From a virus, in IMG/VR virus record IMGVR_UViG_3300009418_000114, positions 1 through 24,759 of that record: a DNA stretch of 24,759 nucleotides; one strand, written 5' to 3'. How positions within the stretch are numbered: the first letter of the stretch is position 1; each line of letters starts with the position of its first letter. The translations under genes were made by a program, and so were the position numbers. The notes under the pieces were generated by a model. The model had not been told where the DNA came from, made no database searches, and saw nothing but the letters and a program-made list of their open reading frames with translations. Shown here in pieces: positions 1 through 19,864 of this stretch.

Positions 1-464
1 GGTTCCACTATGGTCGGTTCAATGGTGGGTTCGTCGTCCATGTTGACCGGGTTGCTCCATCCAGTCCCTTCAGATGCGGGGGCGGGTTGACCCTCAACTT
101 GGCGGGTTCCCCGGCAGCCAGCTTTGTACTGAGAGCAGCCCCAGAATTGCTTCCCAGAATTGTAGCCCCGTTTGGCGGTGCGGATGGTCATGGTCGCTGA
201 ACATACCGGGCAGTACGTGTAGCCAGCCCCAGGGTTTACGGATTGGACTGGGGCCGATTGTGGGGTGGTGGACTCAACCAGTTGACCTAGCTTGTACGTC
301 CGTGGGGCGGTGGTGGGGTCTATCGCACAAGTGTGACTGCCACCAATGTAGCTTTTGGCACCGATTTCCTGGGTGTAATCATAGTACCGTCCGTGGCGGT
401 AGATTGTGCGCTTGTTGCATATCAGGCAAGGTTTGCTATTGGTCTGGCCTTTAACTCGTCCCAT
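1..464 (-). CDS. Zinc-ribbon protein with topoisomerase-I-type C4 finger (partial, runs off left edge)
   Basis: The reading frame opens at an ATG (complement of 462-464) preceded by a strong GGAG site at 471-474, and stays open to position 3 without a stop, so the C-terminus lies outside the window. About 154 residues are visible. An N-terminal CxxC pair (C13, C16) may pair with H45/C46. A second cluster (C85, C88, C110, C117), with the FWGCSxYxxGCRG spacing, matches the zinc-ribbon repeat at the C-terminus of bacterial topoisomerase I, also found alone in nuclease-like and phage proteins. The visible tail is Pro/Glu/Thr-rich and low in complexity. It is the third gene of a leftward group. 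No topoisomerase or nuclease catalytic domain is seen, so the role is open; single-strand DNA binding is the family expectation. Gene call sure, function unsure. Confidence 0.82.
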   Translation of the reverse strand, partial: MGRVKGQTNSKPCLICNKRTIYRHGRYYDYTQEIGAKSYIGGSHTCAIDPTTAPRTYKLGQLVESTTPQSAPVQSVNPGAGYTYCPVCSATMTIRTAKRGYNSGKQFWGCSQYKAGCRGTRQVEGQPAPASEGTGWSNPVNMDDEPTIEPTIVE

Positions 465-496
465 CGTAGTCTCCTTTCTCAACCCGTTTTATTTTT

Positions 497-547
497 AGCT
501 GGGCTTGCCGCCAGCTTGCGGGTTACGCCCCGCCCGTTGTGGCGGGG
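497..547. other. Two hairpins in the gap between leftward small genes
   Basis: Between the zinc-knuckle and zinc-ribbon genes lie two inverted repeats. One is a perfect 7-bp stem (CCCCGCC 528-534 with GGCGGGG 541-547, 6-nt loop). The other is a 6-bp stem (AGCTGG 497-502 with CCAGCT 511-516, 8-nt loop). On the leftward transcript the second is followed by an A-rich run, not U, so neither is a standard intrinsic terminator. They may be processing or stability elements in the leftward message. Confidence 0.4.
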
Positions 548-557
548 TGGCTCACCA

Positions 558-641
558 TTACTTCCTGCAATCCCGGCATATCCCAGTCTTGCGATTCCCA
601 TATCCAATCAATCCGCAGAGTTTACAGACCACTTTAGTCAT
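558..641 (-). CDS. 27-residue zinc-knuckle miniprotein
   Basis: This very short frame reads MTKVVCKLCG at the start and has two CxxC pairs (C6, C9, C22, C25) separated by 12 residues, with basic residues around them. That is the minimum for one zinc-binding treble-clef or ribbon knuckle. The start is an ATG at 641 (an in-frame ATG at 644 is an alternative), with a GAGGAGG site just upstream. The start overlaps the last codons of the 634-879 gene in another frame, which is typical of translational coupling. Function unknown; a nucleic-acid-binding or host-interaction peptide is possible. The four spaced cysteines and the good ribosome site are the reasons to call it. Confidence 0.6.
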   Translation of the reverse strand: MTKVVCKLCGLIGYGNRKTGICRDCRK

Positions 642-879
642 CATTGTCCTCCTCGTGGTGGTATTCGTTCATGGTGTTGGTCAAGGATGGGACACTCCCA
701 ATCTGTCGTTCGTCATCAACCCAGGCCTGTAGATGTGGTATCAGGTAGGCTTCCATCTCGCTCTCCAGGTTTCTCATGTCATTGCACCCTGCCCGTCGGG
801 CGATGTCCTCGGCTATTCCCACCGCATTGCGTATTGCCATTTCCAGTTCTTCCATGTCGTCCATTGTGATTTCGTCCAT
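634..879 (-). CDS. Acidic hypothetical protein (81 aa)
   Basis: I chose the ATG at 879 because AAGGAG (889-894) lies 9 nt upstream of it. An in-frame ATG at 897 would put that site inside the gene. The product is strongly acidic (MDEITMDDMEELEM at the N-terminus, EEDNDD at the C-terminus) and mostly predicted helical, with one Cys and no recognisable family. It is the first gene of a leftward group and overlaps the zinc-knuckle gene at its 3' end. A small acidic phage protein could be a DNA mimic or an inhibitor of a host enzyme, but nothing in the sequence decides this. Gene call good, function unknown. Confidence 0.7.
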   Translation of the reverse strand: MDEITMDDMEELEMAIRNAVGIAEDIARRAGCNDMRNLESEMEAYLIPHLQAWVDDERQIGSVPSLTNTMNEYHHEEDNDD

Positions 880-911
880 CGTCGTCGTCTCCTTCATATA
901 TACCCTCGTTT

Positions 912-936
912 TGACCTGGCCTTGGCACCCAGGTCA
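912..936. promoter_or_regulatory. 8-bp inverted repeat upstream of leftward genes
   Basis: TGACCTGG at 912-919 and CCAGGTCA at 929-936 form a perfect 8-bp dyad with a 9-nt centre, 33-57 nt upstream of the ATG of the 634-879 gene. It is not followed by a U run in either direction, so an operator or 5'-UTR hairpin is more likely than a terminator. Confidence 0.4.
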
Positions 937-946
937 GGGGGTTAAA

Positions 947-966
947 GGAGCGGTGGTTACCGCTCC
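947..966 (-). terminator. Hairpin, probable leftward terminator
   Basis: GGAGCGGT (947-954) and ACCGCTCC (959-966) form a perfect 8-bp G+C-rich stem with a 4-nt loop. On the leftward transcript it is followed by UUUAA, a short U run, so it would be a modest intrinsic terminator. It sits just after the possible 42-residue leftward ORF and before the 634-879 gene, which would separate two leftward transcripts. Confidence 0.45.
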
Positions 967-1037
967 CTGCCTCACCGTTGTCTCTCAACCTGTTACCATG
1001 GCTAGAGCGATAGGGCCATTGTAGAGGCCTCTCGATG

Positions 1038-1166
1038 TCATCGTGGTCTAGCAGGGGCAGTGAGGTTGGCGGCCAGTTTGTGCGCTCTGGTCGCTATTTG
1101 GTTAACCCGCCTTTGAAATCCGGGGGCTATGAGGTTACCACCCTGTTGGTCTACCTCCCCTACCAT
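1038..1166 (-). CDS. Possible 42-residue leftward protein
   Basis: A frame from ATG (1164-1166) encodes 42 residues beginning MVGEVDQQGG, with a basic, alanine-rich C-terminal helix (QIATRAHKLAANL). No convincing Shine-Dalgarno site precedes the ATG; only AGAAG abuts it. The stop overlaps the ATG of an 18-residue frame at 985-1041 (ATGA overlap), and a hairpin terminator follows at 947-966. The order ORF, coupled ORF, terminator supports a real leftward message, but the proteins match nothing I recognise and the frames are short enough to be chance. Confidence 0.3.
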   Translation of the reverse strand: MVGEVDQQGGNLIAPGFQRRVNQIATRAHKLAANLTAPARPR

Positions 1167-1539
1167 CTTCTGATGTGGCTTACACAACCTCGGGAGAGGC
1201 CCTAACACCCGAACTTGAGGAAGAGAGTCGTTCGGGGGACTCCACTTATTTCGTTTTGTCTCGGTTCAGTCTGTTTCGTTTGCCTCCTGTCGGTTGGGTT
1301 CGGGGGTGGGTTCCAAAGGGAACCTTATCCATCAAATTGTTACATTGCAACCCCTTCAGTAGGTGAATTTGGGGCAATCTTCACCAATCTTGGCAAATCA
1401 CGCCAAAAACGACGGTTTTCAGGCAATTCACAGAAAAGATGGTCAGTTTACCGGCAGAACTTTTGTTCCAACTTGTCAGATAGATGTCCCTGCGAGTATG
1501 CTATTCGGGGGTTAAAAGGGCGGAACTACACCGAAACTT
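1167..1539. promoter_or_regulatory. Intergenic control region between divergent gene groups
   Basis: No convincing gene is seen in these roughly 370 bases between the leftward genes and the rightward helix-turn-helix gene. Frames present here lack ribosome sites and have unlikely compositions. The region holds a dyad TTGGC/GCCAA (1390-1394 and 1402-1406) and a direct repeat GGCAA(A/T)TCAC at 1392-1401 and 1422-1431, exactly 30 nt apart (about three helical turns), with a looser copy at 1373-1384. G-rich TTCGGGGG motifs recur near 1231, 1299 and 1504. This is the expected place for the operators of the downstream regulator. Confidence 0.45.
1473..1502 (+). promoter_or_regulatory. Candidate sigma70-like promoter for the HTH gene
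   Basis: TTGTCA (1473-1478, one mismatch to TTGACA) and TATGCT (1497-1502, two mismatches to TATAAT) are separated by 18 nt. They lie about 40 nt upstream of the GGGGGTG ribosome-site-like sequence of the HTH gene, so spacing and placement fit, but the match is only moderate. Confidence 0.4.
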
Positions 1540-2413: not shown

Positions 2414-3472
2414 ATGGTCACGTTCAAAGACCGGATAATAGACTTACGCCGTATCCCGGCCCAGGAATTGCAGGCCAATCCAAAGAACTGGCGGCGCCAT
2501 CCAGCCAGTCAACGGGCAGCTTTGCAGGGCATCTTGGAGGATGTGGGCTTTGCCGACGCTGTCATCGCCAGAGAAACGCCCGATGGCCTGGAATTGATAG
2601 ATGGACATCTGCGCCAGGAAGTCATGGGCGACCAGCTTATCCCGGTGTTGGTGTTGGATGTCACCAAAGACGAAGCTGACAAGATGCTGGCAACCCTCGA
2701 CCCTCTGGCAGCGATGGCCCAGAGCGATAAGCAGGCTTTGAGTTCATTGCTGACCAATATCCAGACTGACAATGAGAAACTGTCGGCGATGCTCTCCACG
2801 CTGGGGATATTCGACACTGAACACGTCGCCATTGATGAACTGCATCCCCATCCCCGCAATTATGTGAAACATCCCGAAGCCCAATTGGAACACCTGGCCC
2901 AAAGCATTAAAGATTATGGGTTATACCGGAACGTGGTGATAGCCCAGGATGGTACGATACTGGCAGGGCATGGAGTGGTTGAGGCAGCCAGGAGGACGGG
3001 ATTAGTGACCATCCCAGTCGTCCGATTGGGGATTGGTGCCGATGACCCGAAAGCATTGAAGCTATTGGCAGGGGATAATGAGACTTCCAACCTTGCGGCA
3101 GTGGATGATAGAGCGTTGACGGATATGCTCAAAGAGATTTATTCAACCGGCCCCGGTGCGTTGGTTGGCACAGGATACGATGAGCAGATGCTTGCCAGCC
3201 TTGCGATGGTCACACGCCCCCAAGAGGAGATTGAAGACTTCGACGAGGCCGCTGAATGGTTGGGGATGCCTGACTTTGAATCATCGGACGAATTTGAAGG
3301 TCAACGGCTCCTTGTCCGGTTCGATTGTGAAGCTGACCGTGACGCCTTCATGGAAACATTGCGCACCCTTGACCCGAACTTCAAGCCTGTTATACGCTCA
3401 AAGAAAGTCTGGTCTACATGGTGGCCCTGGCACGATAAGGACGATGTGATGTCGGTACGCCTTGAAAGTTAA
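2414..3472 (+). CDS. Protein with two tandem ParB/sulfiredoxin-like domains
   Basis: The 352-residue product contains two ParB N-terminal-type domains. The first is at about 8-100, with LQANPKNWRRHP and the LIDGHLRQEV motif at 61-70 (GHxR at 64-67). The second is at about 138-228, with DELHPHPRNYVKHP and ILAGHGVVEAARRTG at 182-196. The second domain's GHG lacks the Arg of the first. A C-terminal module (about 295-340, LLVRFDCEADRDAF then KKVWSTWWP) resembles the small domain that ends many phage ParB-like proteins. ParB-fold domains bind or hydrolyse CTP, or act as nucleases; in phages they often stand near terminase and DNA-modification genes. Chromosome partition is unlikely since no ParA is present. 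GAGGGG (2402-2407) is the ribosome site. Domain assignment is firm, reaction unknown. Confidence 0.85.
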   Translation: MVTFKDRIIDLRRIPAQELQANPKNWRRHPASQRAALQGILEDVGFADAVIARETPDGLELIDGHLRQEVMGDQLIPVLVLDVTKDEADKMLATLDPLAAMAQSDKQALSSLLTNIQTDNEKLSAMLSTLGIFDTEHVAIDELHPHPRNYVKHPEAQLEHLAQSIKDYGLYRNVVIAQDGTILAGHGVVEAARRTGLVTIPVVRLGIGADDPKALKLLAGDNETSNLAAVDDRALTDMLKEIYSTGPGALVGTGYDEQMLASLAMVTRPQEEIEDFDEAAEWLGMPDFESSDEFEGQRLLVRFDCEADRDAFMETLRTLDPNFKPVIRSKKVWSTWWPWHDKDDVMSVRLES

Positions 3473-4376
3473 AAACACCGCCAATCTATTGCCTCGCTAC
3501 CCGGTATACGTCCCGTCCAAGGGCCGGGTGGATGTCAACACCACAGCGAAACTATTATTACGGGATAGCGTCCCATTCTATCTGGTGGTGGAGCCACAAG
3601 AAGCAGACATATATGCAGCGAGATTCGGGCGTGACCGATTGCTGGTATTGCCAGCTAACGACCAGGGCTTGGTATATGTCCGTAATTGGATTAAGGGCCA
3701 TGCTACCGATGCGGGATACGAACGGCATTGGCAACTGGACGATAACCTCACCGAGACATTTCGGGCGTATCGCCCCACTGGGTTGAAATTGTCCAAACGG
3801 CTCCCCTGTCAGGCTGGCATAGCGTTGCGGGTCACTGAAGATTTCGTTGACCGCTACACCAATGTCGCCATCGCTGGGCTGAATTATGATTTCTTCGTCA
3901 GCCAGGTTAATGAAAAACCCTTCCGGTTGAATTGCCACGTCTATTCCTGTACGTTGGTGTTGAATAGTCTGCCGCACCGATGGCGGTTGAGATACAACGA
4001 CGACACGGATTTCTGCCTCCAAGTCTTGGCTGATGGTTGGTGTACCGTCCAGATGCAAGCCTTCCTCGTCCACAAGAAAAGAACCATGACGGTCAAGGGT
4101 GGGAATACGCCGATATATCAGCAAGACGGGCGATTGGAGATGGCTCGCTCACTTGAACGAACATGGCCTGGGGTGGTTAAGACTGGGAGGCGGTTCAAGA
4201 GGCCTCAACATCTTGTCCACAGTTCATGGGGCAAATTCGACACGCCATTACAACGCCGCACCGATATTGATTTCGACAACCTATCGGCTGATGCTTATGG
4301 GATGTCCCTCCGGCAAGCGGCCCCGGAGATTAAAAGCGAGAGACTGAAACGGCTAGTAGCTGAAGATGAGAAGTAA
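3462..4376 (+). CDS. Putative TET-associated-type glycosyltransferase (TAGT-like)
   Basis: The 304-residue protein has the layout of the glycosyltransferase family first described beside phage TET/JBP oxygenases: YVPSKGR at 16-22, a Rossmann-like strand FYLVVEPQEADIY at 39-51, RNWIK at 74-78, a DxD-like W-x-L-DDN at 90-95, and RYNDDTDFCLQVL at 177-189. Family members are thought to put a sugar on a modified DNA base. The start is a TTG at 3462 overlapping the ParB-domain gene by 11 nt; no ATG upstream or before the conserved YVPSKGR exists, so a TTG start (3462 or 3489) is needed. Neighbouring methyltransferase and epimerase genes fit a sugar pathway. No TET-like or hydroxymethylase gene is in the window, so the acceptor is unknown. 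Assigned from memory of family motifs; a glycan substrate is the alternative. Confidence 0.68.
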   Translation: MKVKNTANLLPRYPVYVPSKGRVDVNTTAKLLLRDSVPFYLVVEPQEADIYAARFGRDRLLVLPANDQGLVYVRNWIKGHATDAGYERHWQLDDNLTETFRAYRPTGLKLSKRLPCQAGIALRVTEDFVDRYTNVAIAGLNYDFFVSQVNEKPFRLNCHVYSCTLVLNSLPHRWRLRYNDDTDFCLQVLADGWCTVQMQAFLVHKKRTMTVKGGNTPIYQQDGRLEMARSLERTWPGVVKTGRRFKRPQHLVHSSWGKFDTPLQRRTDIDFDNLSADAYGMSLRQAAPEIKSERLKRLVAEDEK

Positions 4377-4381
4377 GATTT

Positions 4382-5260
4382 ATGTATTTAGTAAGCACTC
4401 CTCCTAGCCGATTCCTTAACGACTTCTTGAACAAATACGCCAGGATGTATCCGATAGATAAGCAATGCGCTAAACATATTATTGACCAAACTATCCAGCA
4501 CAGGCGAGCGAGCAAACGGTATCCGGTGCCATTACCACAGTATACGGTGGAGCAAGAAGACCGGTGGTACGCTTCGATTCAGCGAGGTGAGCCAGATTAT
4601 ACGATATACGATGACGATTACGCCTTTACGGAGATGTGGGTTTGCTGGGCGGTATATAGCCGAAATTATCTGCGTACTCTATTAAAACCTTTCGTATATC
4701 CTCTTGTCGAAAACGTCAAGACTATCGCTGACTTGGGCTGTGGCATCAGCTATACAACGGCGGGCCTCAAGCAACTTTTCCCTTGGAGTGAGGTTGTAGG
4801 CACCAATTTAGAGGGAACGAAACAGTATGATTTCTGTTCGGCTATGGGTCAATCTTACGGGTTCAAGATGGCGTCGGACATAAAAGGACTTGGACAGGTT
4901 GATTTGGTCTTTGCATCGGAATACTTTGAACATATTCTTGCGCCGATAACTCACTTAGAGAATATATTGACTACACTTTGCCCCAAGTTCTTATACATCG
5001 CCAATTCGTTTAATACTTGCTCAGTAGGCCACTTTGACCATTATTCGATGGAGCGAAGTGGGACGCTCAAGCAAGATTGGTTGCCTGCATCAAAATTATC
5101 GTCGGTATTTAATAAGACGCTCCAAGATTATGGTTATACACGTCTTGAGATTAAAGCCTGGAATAATAAGCCTGCATTGTGGGCGAAAGATGGAGGTAAT
5201 GATGTAACAGTGGAAAATGTACCTGATAAAAGTGTACCTGTTGCGAAGCCCAAAAAATAA
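4382..5260 (+). CDS. Class I SAM-dependent methyltransferase
   Basis: The 292-residue protein has SAM-binding motif I IADLGCGIS at 115-123 (D117, G119, G121), an acidic residue after strand 2 (NLEGTKQYD, 142-150), and a motif-IV-like VDLVFASEYFEHI at 173-185, typical of small-molecule or sugar methyltransferases. The N-terminal 110 residues are helical and not recognised. There is no DPPY/NPPY or PCQ motif, so it is not a standard DNA adenine or cytosine methylase. The gene is clearly A+T-richer than its neighbours (two sampled 60-nt lines about 38-42% G+C against about 60% in the terminase), suggesting separate acquisition. It follows the glycosyltransferase by 5 nt. Methylation of the transferred sugar or its precursor is an inference. 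Confidence 0.82.
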   Translation: MYLVSTPPSRFLNDFLNKYARMYPIDKQCAKHIIDQTIQHRRASKRYPVPLPQYTVEQEDRWYASIQRGEPDYTIYDDDYAFTEMWVCWAVYSRNYLRTLLKPFVYPLVENVKTIADLGCGISYTTAGLKQLFPWSEVVGTNLEGTKQYDFCSAMGQSYGFKMASDIKGLGQVDLVFASEYFEHILAPITHLENILTTLCPKFLYIANSFNTCSVGHFDHYSMERSGTLKQDWLPASKLSSVFNKTLQDYGYTRLEIKAWNNKPALWAKDGGNDVTVENVPDKSVPVAKPKK

Positions 5261-5269
5261 GAGAGGCTC

Positions 5270-6265
5270 ATGATGGCGAACGTTTATATAGTCGGCGGTG
5301 CCGGGTTCGGTGGTTCTGGATTGGCGAAGCATTTACTGGAACGGGGTCATAAAATCACAGTCATGGACAGGGTTGGCCCGTTGCAAGCCCCATTATTGCG
5401 TCCAATCATTGACCGGATAGATTATCAGTGGTCGAGTATGCTTGATGTTACTCCGGCCCATTTGAAAGACCAGGACATCGTCATCCACTTGGCAGCGCAA
5501 GCAGACGTGCCGTACGGGTTCGTTGGGCCACGCCAGACAGTCATGGATAACGTCTTGGGAACGGTCTGTTTATTGGAAGCATTGAAGGATGCTCCGTGGG
5601 TCGAGCGGGTCATATACGCCGGGTCAGGTAATGAGTTCGGACGGGCCGAATATTTGCCTATAGACGAGAACCACCCACTGACACCGCACAACCCTTATTC
5701 GTTCTCCAAAGCCGCTGCTGAGATGGCTTTCCGTGCGTACCGGCTCAGTTATGACATCCCAGTAGTCTATATGTCCAACGGGGCTGTCATAGGGCCGAAT
5801 ATGCGCCGGGAGATATTCATCTACAAGTGGCTCCGTCAGATTGCCTTGGGCAAACCTTTGCTTATCGAAGGGGGCGACCAGACACGAGACGTCACGCACG
5901 TAGATGATGTCGTCCAAGCATGGATTGCGGCAGTAGAAGCCCCGGCTGATGATGTCATCGGGGAAAAGTTCCAAGTCTCCTACGGCGAAGAACACAGCAT
6001 CGATGACTTGGCTACGATGTGCATCCAGGTCGCTTGGAAAGAGGCGAAGCGCAACGGCGGCCCAGGCCTTGAACGAACCGGAATGTCCCGTGTTCCTCAT
6101 CGCCCAGGTGAGAAGGGCCAGCGAGAACTATTCACCAATGAAAAGGCCCGGCGGGTGTTGGGTTACGACCCCGTTATTTCCCCGGAAGAAGGCATCGCCA
6201 GGACTTGGGAATGGGTCAAAGCTGAAGTGATAGCAGAGAATAGCGGCCTTGCTATTGCGAGGTAG
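5270..6265 (+). CDS. NAD-dependent nucleotide-sugar epimerase/dehydratase (extended SDR)
   Basis: The 331-residue protein is an extended short-chain dehydrogenase: the NAD loop GGAGFGGSG at 9-17 fits GxxGxxG (with Gly where most have Ile, GFIGS), followed by HLAAQADV at 73-80, the catalytic Ser in YAGSGNEFG (S119), and YxxxK (Y143, K147). The C-terminal half holds RDVTHVDDVVQAW, the usual sugar-binding segment of GalE/GDP-mannose dehydratase-like enzymes. It would change the sugar of a UDP-, GDP- or dTDP-sugar in the cytoplasm. GAGAGG is the ribosome site and the gene starts with two Met codons (5270 or 5273). It follows the methyltransferase by 9 nt. Together with the two genes before it, it would supply and tailor a sugar; the exact reaction cannot be read. 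Confidence 0.88.
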   Translation: MMANVYIVGGAGFGGSGLAKHLLERGHKITVMDRVGPLQAPLLRPIIDRIDYQWSSMLDVTPAHLKDQDIVIHLAAQADVPYGFVGPRQTVMDNVLGTVCLLEALKDAPWVERVIYAGSGNEFGRAEYLPIDENHPLTPHNPYSFSKAAAEMAFRAYRLSYDIPVVYMSNGAVIGPNMRREIFIYKWLRQIALGKPLLIEGGDQTRDVTHVDDVVQAWIAAVEAPADDVIGEKFQVSYGEEHSIDDLATMCIQVAWKEAKRNGGPGLERTGMSRVPHRPGEKGQRELFTNEKARRVLGYDPVISPEEGIARTWEWVKAEVIAENSGLAIAR

Positions 6266-6272
6266 GGTGCAG

Positions 6273-6425
6273 ATGGATGACGCAGAAATCATGGCAGTGT
6301 TCGACCGAATCGCCGAGAAGATAGTTGATGCGATAGAGGCGAATACCATACAGCAAATCGAAATCGTTGGGAGATTGGAACGTATCATCTTTGCCCTTGG
6401 GAATTTAACGGTTGATGATGATTAG
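6273..6425 (+). CDS. Small helical hypothetical protein (50 aa)
   Basis: ATG 6273 follows GGTAGGGTG. The 50-residue product (MDDAEIMAVFDRIAEKIVDA...) looks like one long amphipathic helix with Ile/Ala heptad-like spacing, suggesting a coiled coil, and ends in three Asp residues. It lies between the epimerase and the small terminase, ending 5 nt before the latter, so translation is probably coupled. Function unknown; a small partner of the terminase or of the modification genes is possible. Confidence 0.6.
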   Translation: MDDAEIMAVFDRIAEKIVDAIEANTIQQIEIVGRLERIIFALGNLTVDDD

Positions 6426-6430
6426 CAACC

Positions 6431-6931
6431 ATGCCTGAGAGTAAGTTATCACCACGGCGTATTGATGCCAAGAACAAGCAGCGGCAGGCCTTGGAGTTGC
6501 GGATGGCTGGTAGAACCTGGCAAGAGATAGCCGACAATCTGGGCTATGCCAACCATACCGGGGCGATTGCCGCTGTTAAAACCGCCCTTCAATCAACGCT
6601 CCAACCTCCGGCAGACCACTTCCGGTCTTTAACACTAGAACGGTTAACAAAGATACTGCAAGTGCATTGGCCCTTGATGCTCCAAGCTGATGCGGCTTCC
6701 ACCCGACTATGCTTGCAGGCCATCGGAGACATCCGGCAATTGATGGGAATGGATTCCCCCGCCAAGATGGAGCATACCGGCGCAGATGGTGCGCCCATCA
6801 AGCATGAGGTGTTAACGCTAGATATTGGTGACATCAGCGAAGCCATATCCGTCTTGCGAGATGCTGGGGCAGTCCGGGTGGAGTCCAATGGACACACTCC
6901 AATTATCGTGGACGGATTACATACCGCATAA
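6431..6931 (+). CDS. Terminase small subunit
   Basis: This 166-residue protein immediately precedes, and overlaps by 44 nt, the large terminase gene. It has an N-terminal helix-turn-helix at about 25-53 (MAGRTWQEIADNLGYAN...AAVKTAL), a central helical region (LERLTKILQVHWPLMLQ) for ring assembly, and a C-terminal tail (EVLTLDIGDISEAISVLRDAG) that would contact the large subunit. Small subunits recognise the packaging site on concatemeric DNA and stimulate the motor. The ribosome site is weak, so expression probably depends on coupling to the 50-residue gene ending 5 nt upstream. Assignment rests on position, HTH and size. Confidence 0.85.
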   Translation: MPESKLSPRRIDAKNKQRQALELRMAGRTWQEIADNLGYANHTGAIAAVKTALQSTLQPPADHFRSLTLERLTKILQVHWPLMLQADAASTRLCLQAIGDIRQLMGMDSPAKMEHTGADGAPIKHEVLTLDIGDISEAISVLRDAGAVRVESNGHTPIIVDGLHTA

Positions 6932-8225
6932 ACCAACTCCGAAGCAGCTTGCCTTTCTGTTATTGACCAATCAGGAAGCCCTGTATGGTGGGGCGGCTGG
7001 CGGTGGCAAAAGCGATGCTCTACTTATGGCTGCATTGCAATACGCCGACGTACCAAGGTATTCAGCCCTGCTCCTAAGACGCTCGTACACTGATTTATCT
7101 TTGCCAGGTGCATTGATGGATAGAGCCAAGGCTTGGCTGATGCCTTCATCGGCCCATTGGCGGGATTCTCTGAAGACATGGGAGTTCCCCAGCGGGGCAA
7201 CCATCACGTTCGGTTATCTGGAAAGGCCGGGAGACGAATACCGCTACCAGTCCACTGAGTTCCAGTTCATCGGCTTCGATGAATTGACCCAATTCACGGA
7301 GGCCCAATACCGCTATCTATTCAGCCGGTTACGCCGTCCCAGTGATGTGGAAGTTCCACTCCGTATGCGTTCCGCTAGTAACCCTGGCGGCGTGGGCCAT
7401 GAGTGGGTGCGTGAGCGGTTCATAGATGCGAGAGGGTCAATCGAGAGCCGTATCTTCATCCCGGCATCATTACCGGATAATCCTTACCTTGACCAAGCAG
7501 CTTATCTGGAATCGCTGAACCAACTCGACCCGGTAACTCGTCAGCAATTATTGGTCGGGGATTGGACAGCCCGACAACCTGGAAGTCTATTCAAGAGAGA
7601 ATGGTTCACCGTCGTGGACGAATTGCCCGTTGTCATGAACCGCAGCGTCCGTTATTGGGACTTGGCAGCGACTCCATTACGGGGCGGGAACGACCCAGAC
7701 TACACCGCCGGGGTCAGGGTGGATTACGGAGCCGATGGACTATATTACGTGGTGGATGTGCAGCGGATGCGTGGCACTCCCGGTGAGGTTGAAGCACTTA
7801 TCAGGCAGACGGCGATGATGGATGGGAGCGGGACACAGATATACATCGAACAGGAACCAGGCTCCAGTGGGGTCAATACCATCTACCATTATGTGACCAG
7901 AGTCTTGGCAGACTTCACGGTGCGGGGGCAACGGGCCACCGGCTCCAAAGTGGAACGGGCAGGCCCAGTTAGCAGCCAGGCTGAAGTGGGGAATGTTCGT
8001 CTATTCCGTGGGGCGTGGCTGGGGCCATTCCTTGATGAAGTGGAAGCGTTCCCGCTGGGCCGCCATGACGACCAAGTGGATGGGCTATCGGGGGCGTTCA
8101 TGCGGTTGCGTGGGATGCGGCCCGTGGAGCCATTGGTGCATCAATTGGTCGGCACCCGGCGCATGAACCGAACCGACAACCCATTGGGACTTGACCCAGA
8201 CAACCCGATATATTGGGATGCGTAG
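6888..8225 (+). CDS. terL: Terminase large subunit (packaging ATPase-nuclease)
   Basis: I start at ATG 6888, directly after GGTGGAG (6878-6883); an in-frame start 63 nt upstream lacks a better site. The 445-residue protein has Walker A GGAAGGGKS at 34-42, Walker B FIGFDE at 127-132 (D131, catalytic E132) and the coupling motif SASNPGG at 162-168. The RNase-H-like nuclease follows with acidic residues in YWDLA (D258), IYIEQEPG (E321) and HDDQVDG (D395, D398). All motor and nuclease residues are present. Length is typical of the terminase_6 type. It drives ATP-dependent DNA packaging through the portal and cuts the concatemer. Confidence 0.96.
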   Translation: MDTLQLSWTDYIPHKPTPKQLAFLLLTNQEALYGGAAGGGKSDALLMAALQYADVPRYSALLLRRSYTDLSLPGALMDRAKAWLMPSSAHWRDSLKTWEFPSGATITFGYLERPGDEYRYQSTEFQFIGFDELTQFTEAQYRYLFSRLRRPSDVEVPLRMRSASNPGGVGHEWVRERFIDARGSIESRIFIPASLPDNPYLDQAAYLESLNQLDPVTRQQLLVGDWTARQPGSLFKREWFTVVDELPVVMNRSVRYWDLAATPLRGGNDPDYTAGVRVDYGADGLYYVVDVQRMRGTPGEVEALIRQTAMMDGSGTQIYIEQEPGSSGVNTIYHYVTRVLADFTVRGQRATGSKVERAGPVSSQAEVGNVRLFRGAWLGPFLDEVEAFPLGRHDDQVDGLSGAFMRLRGMRPVEPLVHQLVGTRRMNRTDNPLGLDPDNPIYWDA

Positions 8226-11341: not shown

Positions 11342-11614
11342 ATGGAAGCCGTATTGCGAGATGAAACTAAGACAGTGATACGCCAACACCGGGGAGTGCT
11401 TTGGTGTCCATTTTGTGACCGGAGCCGCCAGGAGTCGAGGCCGACTTCATTCTGTGAAGGATGTGGGGCTGAGTTCGTTGGGATAACCGTGGAAACCACC
11501 CCAGTACCGGAACCCGATGGGGTGGATAGATTCATCACCCAATACAACGATGAGCATCCCGACCAGATGGTGCCGTTGCGCCGAACCCGTGGTCGCCCAC
11601 GCAAACAAGCATGA
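11342..11614 (+). CDS. Zinc-ribbon protein with C-terminal AT-hook
   Basis: The 90-residue product has CPFC (C22, C25) and CEGC (C38, C41), a compact zinc ribbon, followed by an acidic linker and the C-terminal RTRGRPRKQA, which contains the GRP core flanked by basic residues typical of an AT-hook that binds the minor groove of A+T-rich DNA. A zinc ribbon with an AT-hook suggests a small DNA-binding or transcription-modulating protein. It lies between the MuF-like gene and another zinc-ribbon gene, whose ATG overlaps its stop (ATGA). The molecular role is unknown; both motifs are read directly from the sequence. Confidence 0.75.
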   Translation: MEAVLRDETKTVIRQHRGVLWCPFCDRSRQESRPTSFCEGCGAEFVGITVETTPVPEPDGVDRFITQYNDEHPDQMVPLRRTRGRPRKQA

Positions 11615-11817
11615 AGTGCTATCGCTGTGAATCTAGCGAGTTATCCTTGGCGGCTTTGTGGCCTCAAGACCGGAAGACATATGCTGCCATCGGCATCGTG
11701 ATGCGGCTTTGTAAGAATTGCGGCTTGGAGCAAAACCATTGCGGGGATGATGAAACCACCGACCCGGCAGAGGCCGCTCAGATGGCCCCTTCCGTCCCGA
11801 TACCGTTCCTGATATAA
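11611..11817 (+). CDS. Small zinc-ribbon protein (68 aa)
   Basis: The frame starts MKCYRCESSEL with CxxC (C3, C6) and has a second pair, CKNC at 34-37, with a further Cys at 44: one zinc ribbon of about 40 residues and a Pro-rich acidic tail. Its ATG overlaps the stop of the preceding zinc-ribbon gene (ATGA), so the two are made together. Position in the head cluster does not fit a known structural part; regulation of late genes or host transcription is possible but unproved. Confidence 0.7.
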   Translation: MKCYRCESSELSLAALWPQDRKTYAAIGIVMRLCKNCGLEQNHCGDDETTDPAEAAQMAPSVPIPFLI

Positions 11818-16361: not shown

Positions 16362-16727
16362 ATGGCAGATAAGTTATTGCAAGGGTTGGATTTGACCTAT
16401 ATGAGGGCAGCGATGAAGACCGCCATGCCCGACACGGTAAACATCCAACGAGAATCACAGGAGGCCGACGGACAGGGCGGCTTCATAACAAGTTGGGGGA
16501 ATGTGTACCAAAACATCCCAGCCCGGCTTAATGCGAAAGGAGCGAGCGAATCTATCGCTGCTGAGAGACTGGATACCCAGTTGGATTTCACCTTGACGGT
16601 AGCGTATGACCAATCCATCGACCCAACCGATAGGGTGGTTCACTCCAGTGGGACTTATGCTGTACAATCAGTGGACACCGGCAAATCCTGGACGCTGTCA
16701 AAGCGATGCCAGATGCGCCAACTGTAG
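16362..16727 (+). CDS. Head-completion/stopper protein (SPP1 gp16-like)
   Basis: The 121-residue protein is beta-rich with the pattern of head closure proteins: PDTVNIQRESQEADGQGGFITSWGNVYQNIPARL, then TLTVAYDQSIDPTDRVVHSSGTYAVQSVD near the C-terminus (a small SH3-like barrel in this family). It lies 2 nt after the adaptor and is followed by the Com-like gene, which overlaps its end by 22 nt. It would plug the portal after packaging. Assignment is by pattern and gene order. Confidence 0.82.
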   Translation: MADKLLQGLDLTYMRAAMKTAMPDTVNIQRESQEADGQGGFITSWGNVYQNIPARLNAKGASESIAAERLDTQLDFTLTVAYDQSIDPTDRVVHSSGTYAVQSVDTGKSWTLSKRCQMRQL

Positions 16728-16924
16728 GGCTGCAAGAGGCCCGATGCCGCAGAATAGAATGCCGGAGTTTACTAGCCCGAATCCGATTGGATGGGAGTAG
16801 CCTAGTCGAGATTAAGTGCCGCCGATGCCAGGCTGTCAGCACTTTTGCACCCGAAACAGCGAAGGTCAAGCTGAAAGCTGACGGACAAGGTGGCTACATC
16901 CATGTCCCGGTGGGCGACAATTGA
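16706..16924 (+). CDS. Com-like zinc-finger protein
   Basis: The 72-residue product contains ARCRRIECRSLLARIRLDG...EIKCRRC, the arrangement of the Mu Com family (Cys pair, LLA, a loop, then EIKCPRC), with Cys at 14, 19, 38 and 41. The first pair is C-x4-C rather than the usual C-x2-C, so the zinc site is slightly altered. Com binds its own message upstream of the mom gene and opens a stem that hides the mom start. No mom homologue is seen here. It overlaps the stopper gene by 22 nt. The placement, 30 nt before the leader ORF and terminator at 16958-17053, would fit an RNA-binding regulator of them, an inference. Confidence 0.68.
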   Translation: MPDAPTVGLQEARCRRIECRSLLARIRLDGSSLVEIKCRRCQAVSTFAPETAKVKLKADGQGGYIHVPVGDN

Positions 16925-17383: not shown

Positions 17384-17797
17384 ATGGCTAATCTGAGGGT
17401 AAATCTGGATACAGCGGTATATGCGGTGCTGAACGTAGCGGCAGTGACCAATGAGGCCACGGGTGGCGTGTTCAACCTCCTCGCCCCAGCTAACACTGCA
17501 CCGCCTTATGTGGTGTTCCAGGCTATGTCCAAAGTGGACGAATATTGGTCGTACACCGGGCGGGGTGGAGCCGCCGTTTACATGATTAAAGCCATAGACC
17601 GGAGTCCCTGGCCCAAATCGGCAGGGGATATAGACACCCAGATTGATTCAGTCATGCAGGATGCTTCGTTGAGCATCACGGGCCATGCGTTACTTATGTG
17701 CCGCCGGGAATCTGATATTTACTTAACAGAAGACCAAGATGGAGTCGTGTATCAACACGTTGGAGGGCTGTATCGCATCATCGCAGACCAAAGCTAA
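17384..17797 (+). CDS. Tail terminator protein (DUF3168-like)
   Basis: The 137-residue protein directly follows the gp10-like gene (stop TAG, then ATG with no gap). It has the DUF3168 pattern: an N-terminal helix (LDTAVYAVLNV), a GGVFNLLAPANTAPPYVVFQAM strand with PPYVV, then YMIKAIDRSPWPKSAGDIDTQIDSVMQDASLSI and a final strand YQHVGGLYRI. These proteins cap the tail tube at the head-proximal end. Order (gp10-like, terminator, tube) is standard. Its 3' end overlaps the zinc-finger gene by 59 nt. Confidence 0.85.
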   Translation: MANLRVNLDTAVYAVLNVAAVTNEATGGVFNLLAPANTAPPYVVFQAMSKVDEYWSYTGRGGAAVYMIKAIDRSPWPKSAGDIDTQIDSVMQDASLSITGHALLMCRRESDIYLTEDQDGVVYQHVGGLYRIIADQS

Positions 17798-17963
17798 AGG
17801 ATGTATTCACCATTGGATGATTGAAGCTGCTAATGGCAAACTGAGCCAAGGCCGGTGTGAGAAATGCCAGGAGACAAGGCAGTTCGATAATTCTATATCT
17901 GAGGACATATTCTCATTTTCCAGGAAAGAAAACTTCCATGCCAGACACCACGAAGACAACTGA
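17739..17963 (+). CDS. Small CxxH/CxxC zinc-finger protein
   Basis: The core CIHHWMIEAANGKLSQGRCEKCQETRQF (residues 22-49; read as C-x2-H-W ... NG-x-L/S-x-G-x-C-x2-C) is a mini zinc-finger pattern seen in many small phage and actinobacterial proteins. The start is uncertain: ATG 17739 overlaps the tail-terminator gene by 59 nt and has only AGAAG upstream; later Met codons would remove the first zinc ligands. The 3' end overlaps the next gene by 26 nt. The domain is firm; its job is unknown, and the first 20 residues may not be translated. Confidence 0.6.
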   Translation: MESCINTLEGCIASSQTKAKGCIHHWMIEAANGKLSQGRCEKCQETRQFDNSISEDIFSFSRKENFHARHHEDN

Positions 17964-18204
17964 AGAAGAACCAATCTGGTATCTGGCCTTGAAGAAACTG
18001 CTGATGGCTCAAGGGCCGGGGGTTACGCCATCGTCTATCCGCATCCACCGGGGCCAGCGATTCGCCTTGGATGGGGACGAGCCGGTGGACGTAGAAGAAT
18101 TGATACGGTTGCGAGCCGTCAAGGTGTATGAAGAATCCGACGCTGAATGGGCGCAAGGGGAATTAGCTAAAGCACCCAAACCCAAGAGGAGGAACCGTGG
18201 CTAG
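17938..18204 (+). CDS. Hypothetical protein between tail terminator and tail tube (88 aa)
   Basis: I start at ATG 17938, with AGGAAAG (17921-17927) about 10 nt upstream; the frame opens earlier (17857) but that part overlaps the zinc-finger gene and is basic and unlikely. The product has EEEPIWYLALKKLLMAQGPGVTPSSIRIHRGQRFALDGDEP, then VEELIRLRAVKVYEESD and a Lys/Arg-rich end (PKPKRRNRG). The 'IRIHRGQRFALDG' strand followed by 'V-L-I-R-L-R-AV' resembles small neck/tail accessory proteins. Role unknown. It overlaps the tube gene by 8 nt. Confidence 0.7.
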   Translation: MPDTTKTTEEEPIWYLALKKLLMAQGPGVTPSSIRIHRGQRFALDGDEPVDVEELIRLRAVKVYEESDAEWAQGELAKAPKPKRRNRG

Positions 18205-18958
18205 AATCCATGCAAAGTCTGCCGGTTTATTGGTGGATGAATTTGACTTCAGCGGAATATCCAACTCCATGACGCTGAACTTTGCTGAGACCCCGGCTGA
18301 CGTAACAGCTTTCGCCGATACTGACATGACTTACGTCCAGGGAAAGCCAACATTCACCTTCGATGTAAACGGGCTTTGGAGTACGTCCAGCCCGAACTAC
18401 GACGGTGAAATGTTCACTGACCTTACCGCCACAGCGAGGCGGGTTGGAATCTATCCCGGCGGGTTGACCCAAGGCAATGTGGGCTATGAAGGGCCAACTC
18501 TAATCAGCGCATCTCCCCGTGTCAGCAGCGTTGGGGATGCCATCGCCTGCAACGTCACCTGGCAGGGTGCAAGCGCACCGTTCCGCTCCCAAATCATTCT
18601 CGCCAACACGATAACCTGCAACGGCTCGACAGTGGTCGTCAACGGCACTGGCTATAACAGCGGCGTGATAGCCGCAACCAACACGATTTTCGGTGTCTGG
18701 CGAATGGTCGAAATGGGTGGCTCTGGGACAAATACGATTGCCCTGGAAATCCAGAGCGAGACGAATGATACCTGGGGTTCCCCCACGACCCGCATCAACT
18801 TCGGGACTATTACGCATAGCACCGGGGTATCGTTCCTTACTGCGTCTGCCACAGGGCCAGGAGCATCTGAATCTTGGTGGCGGGTGAAGATACAGTCGTC
18901 CGGCACAGGAAGCCGAACGTTTCAGAATTACGTCAGTTTCGGTTACTTCGTAACGTAG
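18197..18958 (+). CDS. Tail-tube-like protein 1, with extra C-terminal beta domain
   Basis: This gene starts with GTG 18197, preceded by GAGGAGG (4-nt spacing), and overlaps the preceding stop. Residues 1-130 match the other two tube proteins in pattern: MARIHAKSAGLLVDEFDFSGI, TLNFAETPADVTAFADT, GKPTFTFDVNGLW, VTWQG near 125. Residues 130-253 form an additional beta-rich, Gly/Thr/Ser-rich domain (STVVVNGTGYNSG, TNTIALEIQSET, ESWWRVKIQSSGTGS) absent from the others. Tube proteins polymerise as stacked rings; extra C-terminal domains decorate the tube surface or bind glycans. Assigned by pattern and position; which of the three is the main tube protein cannot be told. Confidence 0.78.
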   Translation: MARIHAKSAGLLVDEFDFSGISNSMTLNFAETPADVTAFADTDMTYVQGKPTFTFDVNGLWSTSSPNYDGEMFTDLTATARRVGIYPGGLTQGNVGYEGPTLISASPRVSSVGDAIACNVTWQGASAPFRSQIILANTITCNGSTVVVNGTGYNSGVIAATNTIFGVWRMVEMGGSGTNTIALEIQSETNDTWGSPTTRINFGTITHSTGVSFLTASATGPGASESWWRVKIQSSGTGSRTFQNYVSFGYFVT

Positions 18959-18967
18959 GAGATAGAC

Positions 18968-19402
18968 ATGGCAAGAACCCACGGGAAAGATAGTAATTTC
19001 AGCTTCAATTCGGTGGCGATTGAGGATGAACTGACCAGTATCACCATGACTGCATCGGTTGCAGAGGGCGATATCACTGCCTTCGGGGATGCGTACCAAA
19101 ATTTCCTGGCAGGGAAGAAGGACATATCTTTCGATGTGACGGGGGCGTTGGACATGGATTTCGCATCGGATGGGGATGCAACTATCTTCGACCACATCGC
19201 CTTGACATCGGGGCCGAAGACGCTGGTCTATGACCCGGACGGAGCAGGGCCAGACACCAATTCCCCAGAATATACTTGTACGTCCAGCGGTTTGACCGGA
19301 GCGTTGGTGTCGTCGTATACCATCAATCTACCAGTGGGGGATGCTGCCACGTACACCGCCACTTTCCAATGTAGTGGGTCAACTACACGGGCCGTTTCAT
19401 AA
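18968..19402 (+). CDS. Tail-tube-like protein 2
   Basis: The 144-residue product begins MARTHGKDSNFSFNSVAIEDE and has TMTASVAEGDITAFGDAYQNFLAGKKDISFDVTG and a C-terminal strand (SYTINLPVGDAATYTATFQ). It shares its start and the 'DITAFGD.YQNFLAGK' block with protein 3 almost exactly and the pattern with protein 1, so the three genes arose by duplication. AGGAGATAG is the ribosome site. Size and fold-like pattern fit a siphovirus major tail protein; a second subunit type within the tube or a tip/neck ring is possible. Confidence 0.8.
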   Translation: MARTHGKDSNFSFNSVAIEDELTSITMTASVAEGDITAFGDAYQNFLAGKKDISFDVTGALDMDFASDGDATIFDHIALTSGPKTLVYDPDGAGPDTNSPEYTCTSSGLTGALVSSYTINLPVGDAATYTATFQCSGSTTRAVS

Positions 19403-19456
19403 ATCGCCTTAAACCGGCTCTGAGGGCCAAATAAACCATACTGAGGAGGGACTATC

Positions 19457-19864
19457 ATGGCACGAACTCATGGGAAAGATGCTGACTTTACGTTTGACTC
19501 GGTAGCGATTGAAGATGAGTTAAACTCAGTCACGCTGAACTTTACCGTACCGGAAGCCGACATCACCGCTTTCGGTGACTCGTATCAAAACTTCTTGGCA
19601 GGCAAACCAACCGCCACCATCGACGTTGCGGGGTTCGCTGACCTGGCCTCCAGCCAGGGCGATGCAACCATATTCGGGGAACTGGGGCTGGAAGGCGAAG
19701 AATGGGATTTCGAGCCTGACGGCAGCACGGGCTACAACGGTTTTGCCATCGTCACAAGCTATTCTATTACCAGCACGGTTGGTGGGCCGATAACCTATTC
19801 GGCTTCGTTCCGACACAACGGTGGGTCTGCCGCTGCTGACGCTGCTGCGCCGACCAGAGGGTAA
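19457..19864 (+). CDS. Tail-tube-like protein 3
   Basis: The 135-residue product begins MARTHGKDADFTFDSVAIEDE and continues VTLNFTVPEADITAFGDSYQNFLAGKPTATIDVAG, ending YSITSTVGGPITYSASFRHNG. It is the closest paralogue of protein 2. GAGGAGGG (6-nt spacing) is a strong ribosome site, and the gene is preceded by a 54-nt gap, so it may be the most highly made of the three. It directly precedes the tail chaperone gene. Assigned by pattern, paralogy and place. Confidence 0.82.
   Translation: MARTHGKDADFTFDSVAIEDELNSVTLNFTVPEADITAFGDSYQNFLAGKPTATIDVAGFADLASSQGDATIFGELGLEGEEWDFEPDGSTGYNGFAIVTSYSITSTVGGPITYSASFRHNGGSAAADAAAPTRG

What the first reader, a model, noticed from the sequence alone, without database searches (positions are those of the whole stretch)
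2414..6265. Putative sugar-modification cassette just before the terminase: double-ParB, TAGT-like glycosyltransferase, methyltransferase, epimerase
Four tightly packed genes carry ParB-like domains (LIDGHLRQEV; ILAGHGVV), a glycosyltransferase with YVPSKGR, RNWIK and WxLDDN, a class I methyltransferase (IADLGCGIS) and an SDR epimerase (YSFSK). TAGT-type glycosyltransferases are known mainly beside phage DNA-base oxygenases, where they are thought to glycosylate hydroxymethylated bases. Here no oxygenase or hydroxymethylase is in the window, so the acceptor is unknown. A phage that makes its own nucleotide sugar, adds and methylates it near packaging could protect its DNA from restriction. Alternatively the cassette could act on a host or capsid glycan.
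Basis: partly seen in the sequence, partly recalled or inferred. Interest (0 to 1): 0.82.

Follow-up and report, generated by a model that had tools for sequence, protein, structure and literature searches.

The report
Phage ParB–TAGT–methyltransferase sugar-decorating cassette
This uncultivated phage carries, next to its DNA-packaging genes, a DNA-binding-type protein, a TAGT-family sugar transferase, a new methyltransferase family and a sugar-nucleotide enzyme; in sister phages the transferase and methyltransferase are one fused protein, so they probably put methylated sugars on DNA, although no enzyme that would make the expected DNA attachment point was found in any relative searched.

Summary
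The window is a whole 24,759-b IMG/VR record. 2414-3472 encodes two ParB-like domains plus a small C-terminal domain; 3462-4376 is a bona fide TAGT (PF20691, E 1.5e-46; predicted GT-A fold); 4382-5260 is a class-I methyltransferase (MT) of an undescribed family; 5270-6265 is an extended-SDR nucleotide-sugar enzyme. ParB, or only its small C-terminal domain, lies directly upstream of TAGT in 82 of 94 related viral loci, often followed by terminase. The small domain is also fused to the N-terminus of TAGT in isolates (Aeh1, POP12, PTm1, Kuja). All 11 loci found with MT alone carry TAGT, fused in one ORF in sister phages (L009-L011) and, with a very different TAGT, in L012. Other loci add UDP-xylose synthase, RGP, FkbM methyltransferase or extra TAGTs. 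The module most likely builds a tailored, here methylated, sugar on phage DNA. The acceptor is open: thymidylate-synthase/dCMP-hydroxymethylase and Tet_JBP genes are absent from all 39 records searched (positive controls ring), though these are fragments. New variant of a known kind.

The parts
2447..2785 (+). first ParB-like domain (partial, divergent)
   Evidence: profile hit, positions 2-116
2819..3256 (+). second ParB-like domain (ILAGHGVVEAARR), type found fused to phage DNA methylases
   Evidence: Pfam ParB_N E 4e-6; PHROG 498/620; PADLOC MTase_II residues 137-279
3257..3469 (+). small C-terminal domain (LLVRF...STWWP); in other phages a stand-alone ORF or fused to the N-terminus of TAGT
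2414..3472 (+). double-ParB gene, 352 aa
3462..4376 (+). TAGT-family glycosyltransferase, 304 aa, TTG start overlapping the ParB stop
   Evidence: PF20691 E 1.5e-46; GT-A fold; R22, R74, D93, D94, N134, D181, D183 invariant across 46 homologues
4382..5260 (+). TAGT-linked class-I methyltransferase (undescribed family), likely sugar O-methyltransferase
   Evidence: fused to TAGT in L009-L012
5270..6265 (+). extended-SDR nucleotide-sugar epimerase/dehydratase-type enzyme
   Evidence: Pfam Epimerase E 1.2e-43; PDB matches to sugar-nucleotide epimerases and dehydratases; alignment
6249..6425 (+). short ORF overlapping the end of the SDR gene, no family (context)
6431..6931 (+). terminase small subunit candidate (context)
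   Evidence: position before the large subunit and HTH-type weak hits
6825..8225 (+). terminase large subunit (context; ORF as listed, the real start may lie downstream)
   Evidence: PHROG 979 E 8e-119

Best explanation
A post-replicative DNA-hypermodification module. (1) Shown by homology: the 3462 product is a GT-A glycosyltransferase of the TAGT family. (2) Inferred: the ParB-like protein and its small C-terminal domain bind phage DNA or bring TAGT to it; TAGT transfers a sugar from a nucleotide sugar to a hydroxyl on a DNA base, or on a sugar already there. (3) Inferred: the SDR at 5270-6265 makes or alters that nucleotide sugar; it keeps a Glu where UDP-glucuronate decarboxylases have one, so its product need not be a simple 4-epimer. 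(4) Inferred, supported by fusion and linkage: the methyltransferase at 4382-5260 O-methylates the transferred sugar. The product would be a bulky methylated-sugar base that hides DNA from host nucleases before packaging. The acceptor base is unknown and may not be made by the usual thymidylate-synthase-type or Tet_JBP enzymes.
For: TAGT membership and fold. ParB or its small domain directly upstream of TAGT in 82/94 viral loci; 84 of 116 ParB matches in 1.13 Mb lie there; same order in 13/18 MAG contigs. The ParB type is that of DNA-methylase fusions; ParBc genes also accompany the phage DNA-modification gene CmoX (PMC12783734). Small domain fused N-terminally to TAGTs of Aeh1, POP12, PTm1, Kuja and Vibrio phage 1.124.O. 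MT: 11/11 loci found with MT alone carry TAGT next to it or fused; fusion in records from three samples (L009-L011) and with a very divergent TAGT in L012; more MT loci in L006, L050, L082, L130. MT fold matches small-molecule methyltransferases including the sugar enzymes EvdMO1 and TylM1; no DNA MTase in the top 50. Interchangeable sugar genes at the same site: UDP-glucuronate decarboxylase (L057, E about 1e-123 to UXS1; motifs in L020, L061, L066), RGP (L049, L058), FkbM MTase (L084), up to four TAGTs (L058). MT dN 0.16 against dS 2.3. Precedents for phage-supplied pentoses on cytosine: RB69 (PMC6024577), Thanatos (PMC12838424).
Against: No enzyme that would supply a hydroxylated base was found: PF00303 0/39 records although the same search finds T4/T6 gp42; Tet_JBP 0/39 (it rings in P12024L); 2OG-FeII_Oxy_3 0/41. 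Vibrio phages 1.124.O and 1.076.O (about 47 kb) carry TAGT and lack all three. In 1.076.O TAGT lies between portal and head-morphogenesis genes, which would also suit virion-protein glycosylation. The sugar-methylation step has no direct evidence; fold matches are only TM about 0.4-0.5. All data are sequence and prediction.
Confidence: 0.55

Rival explanations
1. Ordinary hydroxymethyl-pyrimidine glycosylation: the acceptor is 5hmC or 5hmU made by a hydroxymethylase or dioxygenase encoded in the missing part of this genome or by an unrecognised enzyme, and the cassette is a T6- or P12024L-type pathway with extra tailoring.
For: P12024L has Tet_JBP next to TAGT; T2/T6 TAGT acts on glucosylated hmC (PMC13216743). 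The IMG/VR records are fragments.
Against: 0 of 39 ParB-TAGT records, the largest 142, 129, 96, 90 and 82 kb, have PF00303 or Tet_JBP. Aeh1 and POP12 carry TAGT with a thymidylate-synthase-type gene but no gp42-like match over the cutoff; Petrov 2010 does not list Aeh1 or 65 among gene-42 phages (PMC2993671).
Confidence: 0.2
2. The module glycosylates and methylates a virion protein (portal, capsid, tail) or ParB or terminase itself, not DNA.
For: Location beside head genes; no base hydroxylase; structure matches include protein glycosyltransferases such as LH3/ColGalT1 and SunS.
Against: The constant partner is a DNA-methylase-type ParB, not a structural gene; the small domain is shared with T4-like TAGTs; the reported TAGT activity in T2/T6 is on DNA (PMC13216743).
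Confidence: 0.17
3. The enzymes alter a host surface glycan (LPS or capsule), for example to block superinfection.
For: Epimerase plus glycosyltransferase plus methyltransferase is a common surface-glycan toolkit (general knowledge).
Against: Tight coupling to ParB across many phages; no flippase, polymerase or similar surface-glycan family among the families listed for 98 neighbours.
Confidence: 0.06
4. A variant of the best explanation: the MT methylates the acceptor base or a protein rather than the transferred sugar.
For: The substrate of this family is unknown; in P12024L the methyltransferase beside TAGT is an N6/N4 DNA-methylase type.
Against: MT motif IV is FASEYFEH, not DPPY or PC; not related by profile to the P12024L enzyme; fold neighbours are small-molecule MTases; kept at 66% identity when fused to a very different TAGT (L012), as expected if it works on the product.
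Confidence: 0.2

Closest known systems
T2/T6 beta-glucosyl-HMC-alpha-glucosyltransferase (TAGT, PF20691) pathway
   Same: Same Pfam family; the T6 protein matches PF20691 (E 5e-11); GT-A fold per PMC13216743
   Different: T6 uses gp42-made hmC and an alpha-GT; the window group has ParB as constant partner plus MT and SDR, and no gp42-type gene was seen
TET/JBP-TAGT cluster of Nonlabens phage P12024L
   Same: TAGT next to a base-acting enzyme and a methyltransferase
   Different: Has Tet_JBP; its MTase is N6/N4 DNA-methylase-like; TAGT about 30% identical; no ParB annotated beside it
Isolates with small-domain-TAGT fusions (Aeh1, POP12, PTm1, Kuja, Vibrio 1.124.O/1.076.O)
   Same: Same small domain plus TAGT; for Aeh1 the base is listed as unknown (PMC8056088)
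   Different: Domain fused to TAGT rather than to ParB; no MT or SDR annotated beside it in the regions inspected
Pentose-cytosine phages RB69 and Shewanella phage Thanatos
   Same: Phage-encoded UDP-pentose supply for base decoration (PMC6024577, PMC12838424), like the UDP-xylose synthase and RGP genes beside related TAGTs
   Different: RB69's candidate transferase is GT-B-like; Thanatos has a TS-family hydroxylase candidate; the window SDR is not a UDP-xylose synthase by motif
ParB-DNA methylase and ParB-CmoX phage modification loci
   Same: ParB-like domain beside or fused to a DNA-modifying enzyme (PHROG 498)
   Different: Here the enzyme is a glycosyltransferase

Membership tests
TAGT (PF20691) | sequence match over the curated cutoff, full model | tested here: met
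   159 bits vs 27.5, positions 1-205/205
TAGT (PF20691) | GT-A fold with acidic metal/donor motif | tested here: met
   pLDDT 90.8; Foldseek matches to GT-A enzymes, E down to 1.7e-6 but TM below 0.5; LDDN and D181/D183 invariant or nearly so in 46 homologues
TAGT (PF20691) | transfer of sugar to a modified base in DNA | not testable with these tools
   needs an assay or LC-MS
TET/JBP-associated modification cluster | Tet_JBP dioxygenase in the locus or genome | tested here: not met
   none in the window; 0/39 records including the window; control P12024L rings. Records are fragments, so genome-wide absence is not shown
T-even type glucosyl-hmC pathway | dCMP hydroxymethylase (PF00303) | tested here: not met
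   0/39 records including the window; T4/T6 gp42 found as control. Same limit as above
T-even type glucosyl-hmC pathway | alpha- or beta-GT (PF11440/PF09198) | not tested
   not searched in the relatives
DNA methyltransferase (N6/N4/C5) | DPPY-type or PC catalytic motif in the 4382 product | tested here: not met
   FASEY-EH conserved in 9 homologues instead; no DNA MTase among the top 50 folds
Sugar O-methyltransferase | sugar substrate | not testable with these tools
   fold and fusion only
UDP-xylose synthase (UXS) | HLACPASP / STSEVYGDP / CYDEGKR motifs in the 5270 product | tested here: not met
   window has HLAAQADV / GSGNEFG / PYSFSK; relatives L020, L057, L061, L066 have the motifs or close variants
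ParB-like domain of the DNA-methylase-associated type | sequence match to ParB_N and to ParB-MTase families | tested here: met
Chromosome-partition ParB (CTP clamp) | CTPase motifs, parS binding, ParA partner | not tested
   ParA and parS not searched for; CTPase motifs not checked

The most novel reading that the evidence does not exclude
ParB-TAGT is a large, almost uncultivated class of phage DNA hypermodification that uses an acceptor not made by thymidylate-synthase-type hydroxymethylases or TET enzymes (for example a 5-hydroxy base or a directly glycosylated base), with ParB giving sequence or strand targeting, and with sugar O-methylation by a dedicated enzyme that can be fused to the transferase. 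Methylated-sugar DNA bases would be a new kind of modification.
Probability: 0.3. Interest if true: 0.85.

Novelty: new variant of a known kind. Interest (0 to 1): 0.6.

Why it matters
Hundreds of phage genomes carry a TAGT without the partner glucosyltransferases and with no known acceptor. This locus and its relatives give a concrete, testable architecture: a constant ParB/small-domain plus TAGT core with swappable donor-making and sugar-decorating genes, and a fusion that ties a new methyltransferase family to TAGT. If it acts on DNA, it predicts a new class of base modification (methylated or pentose sugars, perhaps without hydroxymethylation) and a counter-defence route now annotated as hypothetical.

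Tried and rejected
No match: DNA-level search of the phage collection, TAGT in plasmids, MT in phage isolates, MT in bacterial genomes (one MT was later seen in MAG contig L130). Considered that the P12024L methyltransferase or the L084 FkbM enzyme might be the same family as MT: not supported by profile comparison. Considered that the Rhizobium phage RHph_I4 ParB next to a DNA MTase carries the small domain: not supported. Considered the TS-family hits in Aeh1 and henriette as hydroxymethylase evidence: their Asn (LGLPFN, GNPYNM) is that of thymidylate synthase (residue rule from general knowledge). Considered a TAGT swap between the window's phage and its sister L010: window TAGT is nearer L004 (68%) than L010 (60%), although TerL is 83% identical to L010 and 30% to L004; suggestive, not proven. 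My first neighbourhood table missed ORFs hidden by longer antisense frames (for example MT in L006); repeated with a six-frame scan. Iyer et al. 2013, which as I recall defined TAGT, is not in the library, so its neighbourhood figures could not be checked; the ParB or MT link may have been noted there.
Full report
Setting. The window is the whole of an IMG/VR record of 24,759 bases holding terminase, portal, head, tail and tape-measure genes of a tailed phage. No replication genes were recognised in what was annotated, so absence from the window says little on its own.

Observation. All four genes are real, co-directional and nearly overlapping. The 3462 product matches Pfam TAGT over the whole model at 159 bits against a cutoff of 27.5. 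With 46 homologues AlphaFold gives pLDDT 90.8, and the PDB neighbours are GT-A glycosyltransferases and nucleotidyl-sugar enzymes. The ParB protein contains two ParB-like domains and a C-terminal module. The 4382 product reaches no curated family cutoff but folds confidently as a class-I methyltransferase. The 5270 product is an extended SDR. Two other records carry the same locus.

The core is ParB plus TAGT. In the 94 loci examined a ParB-profile match ends within 400 nt upstream of TAGT in 82, and 88 have enough upstream sequence to show it. Of 116 ParB matches in 1.13 Mb, 84 lie at that place. A terminase large subunit of this type follows within 3 kb in 34 of 77 loci, a lower bound because other terminase types are not seen by that profile. 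A scan of bacterial and archaeal genomes returned 18 MAG contigs, 13 with ParB (or its small domain) directly upstream of TAGT; the closest are from a Chloroflexi MAG (63% identity).

The small domain. In many loci only the last 60-90 residues of the ParB protein are present, as a short ORF before TAGT or fused to it. The same domain precedes TAGT within the TAGT proteins of isolated phages: Aeh1 (E 1e-15), POP12 (1.6e-15), PTm1 (4e-9), Kuja (4e-7), Vibrio 1.124.O (8e-5). This ties the window's ParB to TAGT itself and to TAGTs of T4-like phages.

The methyltransferase. Scanning with MT alone gave 11 loci, every one with TAGT beside it or fused. In sister phages L009-L011 (TerL 83% identical to the window) TAGT and MT are one 585-aa protein; L012 fuses the same MT (66%) to a very divergent TAGT and has a radical SAM/SPASM gene where the window has the SDR. 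MT also occurs in L006, L050, L082 and L130. On the TAGT tree well-supported branches force at least three changes of the MT label, so it came or went repeatedly. It has no DNA-MTase motif; structural neighbours are small-molecule methyltransferases, among them sugar enzymes, though at TM 0.4-0.5. Low dN against dS points to purifying selection (synonymous sites are near saturation).

The sugar side. Other ParB-TAGT loci carry UDP-glucuronate decarboxylase (L057, E about 1e-123 to UXS1; motifs in L020, L061, L066), RGP (UDP-arabinopyranose-mutase family) in L049 and L058, an FkbM methyltransferase in L084, radical SAM/SPASM in L012, L049 and L082, and several TAGTs in a row, four in L058. So genes that make or decorate sugars are swapped at this site. 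The window's SDR is not a UXS by motif but keeps a Glu at the matching position; its product is undecided.

The acceptor. The usual enzymes are not found: thymidylate synthase/dCMP hydroxymethylase in 0 of 39 records, by a search that does find gp42 in T4 and T6; Tet_JBP in 0 of 39, found in P12024L; another 2OG oxygenase family in 0 of 41; C5 methylases above cutoff in 3 of 40. The records total about 1.7 Mb but are fragments. In isolates the pattern is similar: Aeh1 and POP12 carry TAGT and thymidylate-synthase-type genes but no gp42-like match over the cutoff, in line with PMC2993671, and PMC8056088 lists the base for the Aeh1 glucosyl transferase as unknown. Linkages without hydroxymethyl are reported: in Thanatos a deoxypentose bound O-glycosidically straight to cytosine (PMC12838424).

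Mechanism. Established by homology: a TAGT glycosyltransferase, a DNA-methylase-type ParB, an SDR, a methyltransferase. Inferred with good support: these act in one pathway, and MT acts with TAGT. Inferred with moderate support: the acceptor is DNA and MT methylates the sugar. Unknown: the acceptor atom and the sugar.

Comparison. It is a TAGT by membership test; it is not a TET cluster nor a T-even pathway by the features tested. The solitary-TAGT puzzle is already in the literature (288 of 753 phages, PMC13216743). What appears new here is the ParB/small-domain partnership across uncultivated phages, the MT family and its fusion to TAGT, and the swappable sugar genes. I could not read the 2013 paper that defined TAGT, so part of this may have been noted there.

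Noticed in passing
L008:690-1838 (128-kb contig): An adenylosuccinate-synthetase-like gene (PF00709 E 2.4e-35) in a TAGT phage: possibly PurZ-like, i.e. a 2-aminoadenine genome that also carries a TAGT.
   Followed up: partly
L058:6000-15000: Four consecutive TAGT genes with ParB-like genes on both sides and an RGP (UDP-arabinopyranose mutase family) gene; suggests stepwise building of an oligosaccharide.
   Followed up: partly
L020:2924-4657: Two TAGT domains in one 577-aa ORF near a UDP-xylose-synthase-like gene.
   Followed up: partly
window 18197-19864: Three consecutive genes for tail-protein-like products; those at 18968-19402 and 19457-19864 start almost identically (MARTHGKD...).
   Followed up: no
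window 11611-11817, 16706-16924, 17739-17963: Three short ORFs with CxxC motifs (zinc-ribbon-like) scattered among head and tail genes.
   Followed up: no
L128, L129: Closest TAGTs outside viral collections (62-63% identity) are in contigs binned as Chloroflexi; a weak hint at the host group.
   Followed up: no
L012:7404-8393, L049:10842-11852, L082:7582-8847: Radical SAM/SPASM enzymes inside ParB-TAGT loci; could be part of acceptor or sugar chemistry.
   Followed up: partly
window 1-1500: No obvious gene was recognised in the first 1.5 kb, and its base skew differs from the rest (AT skew -0.25).
   Followed up: no
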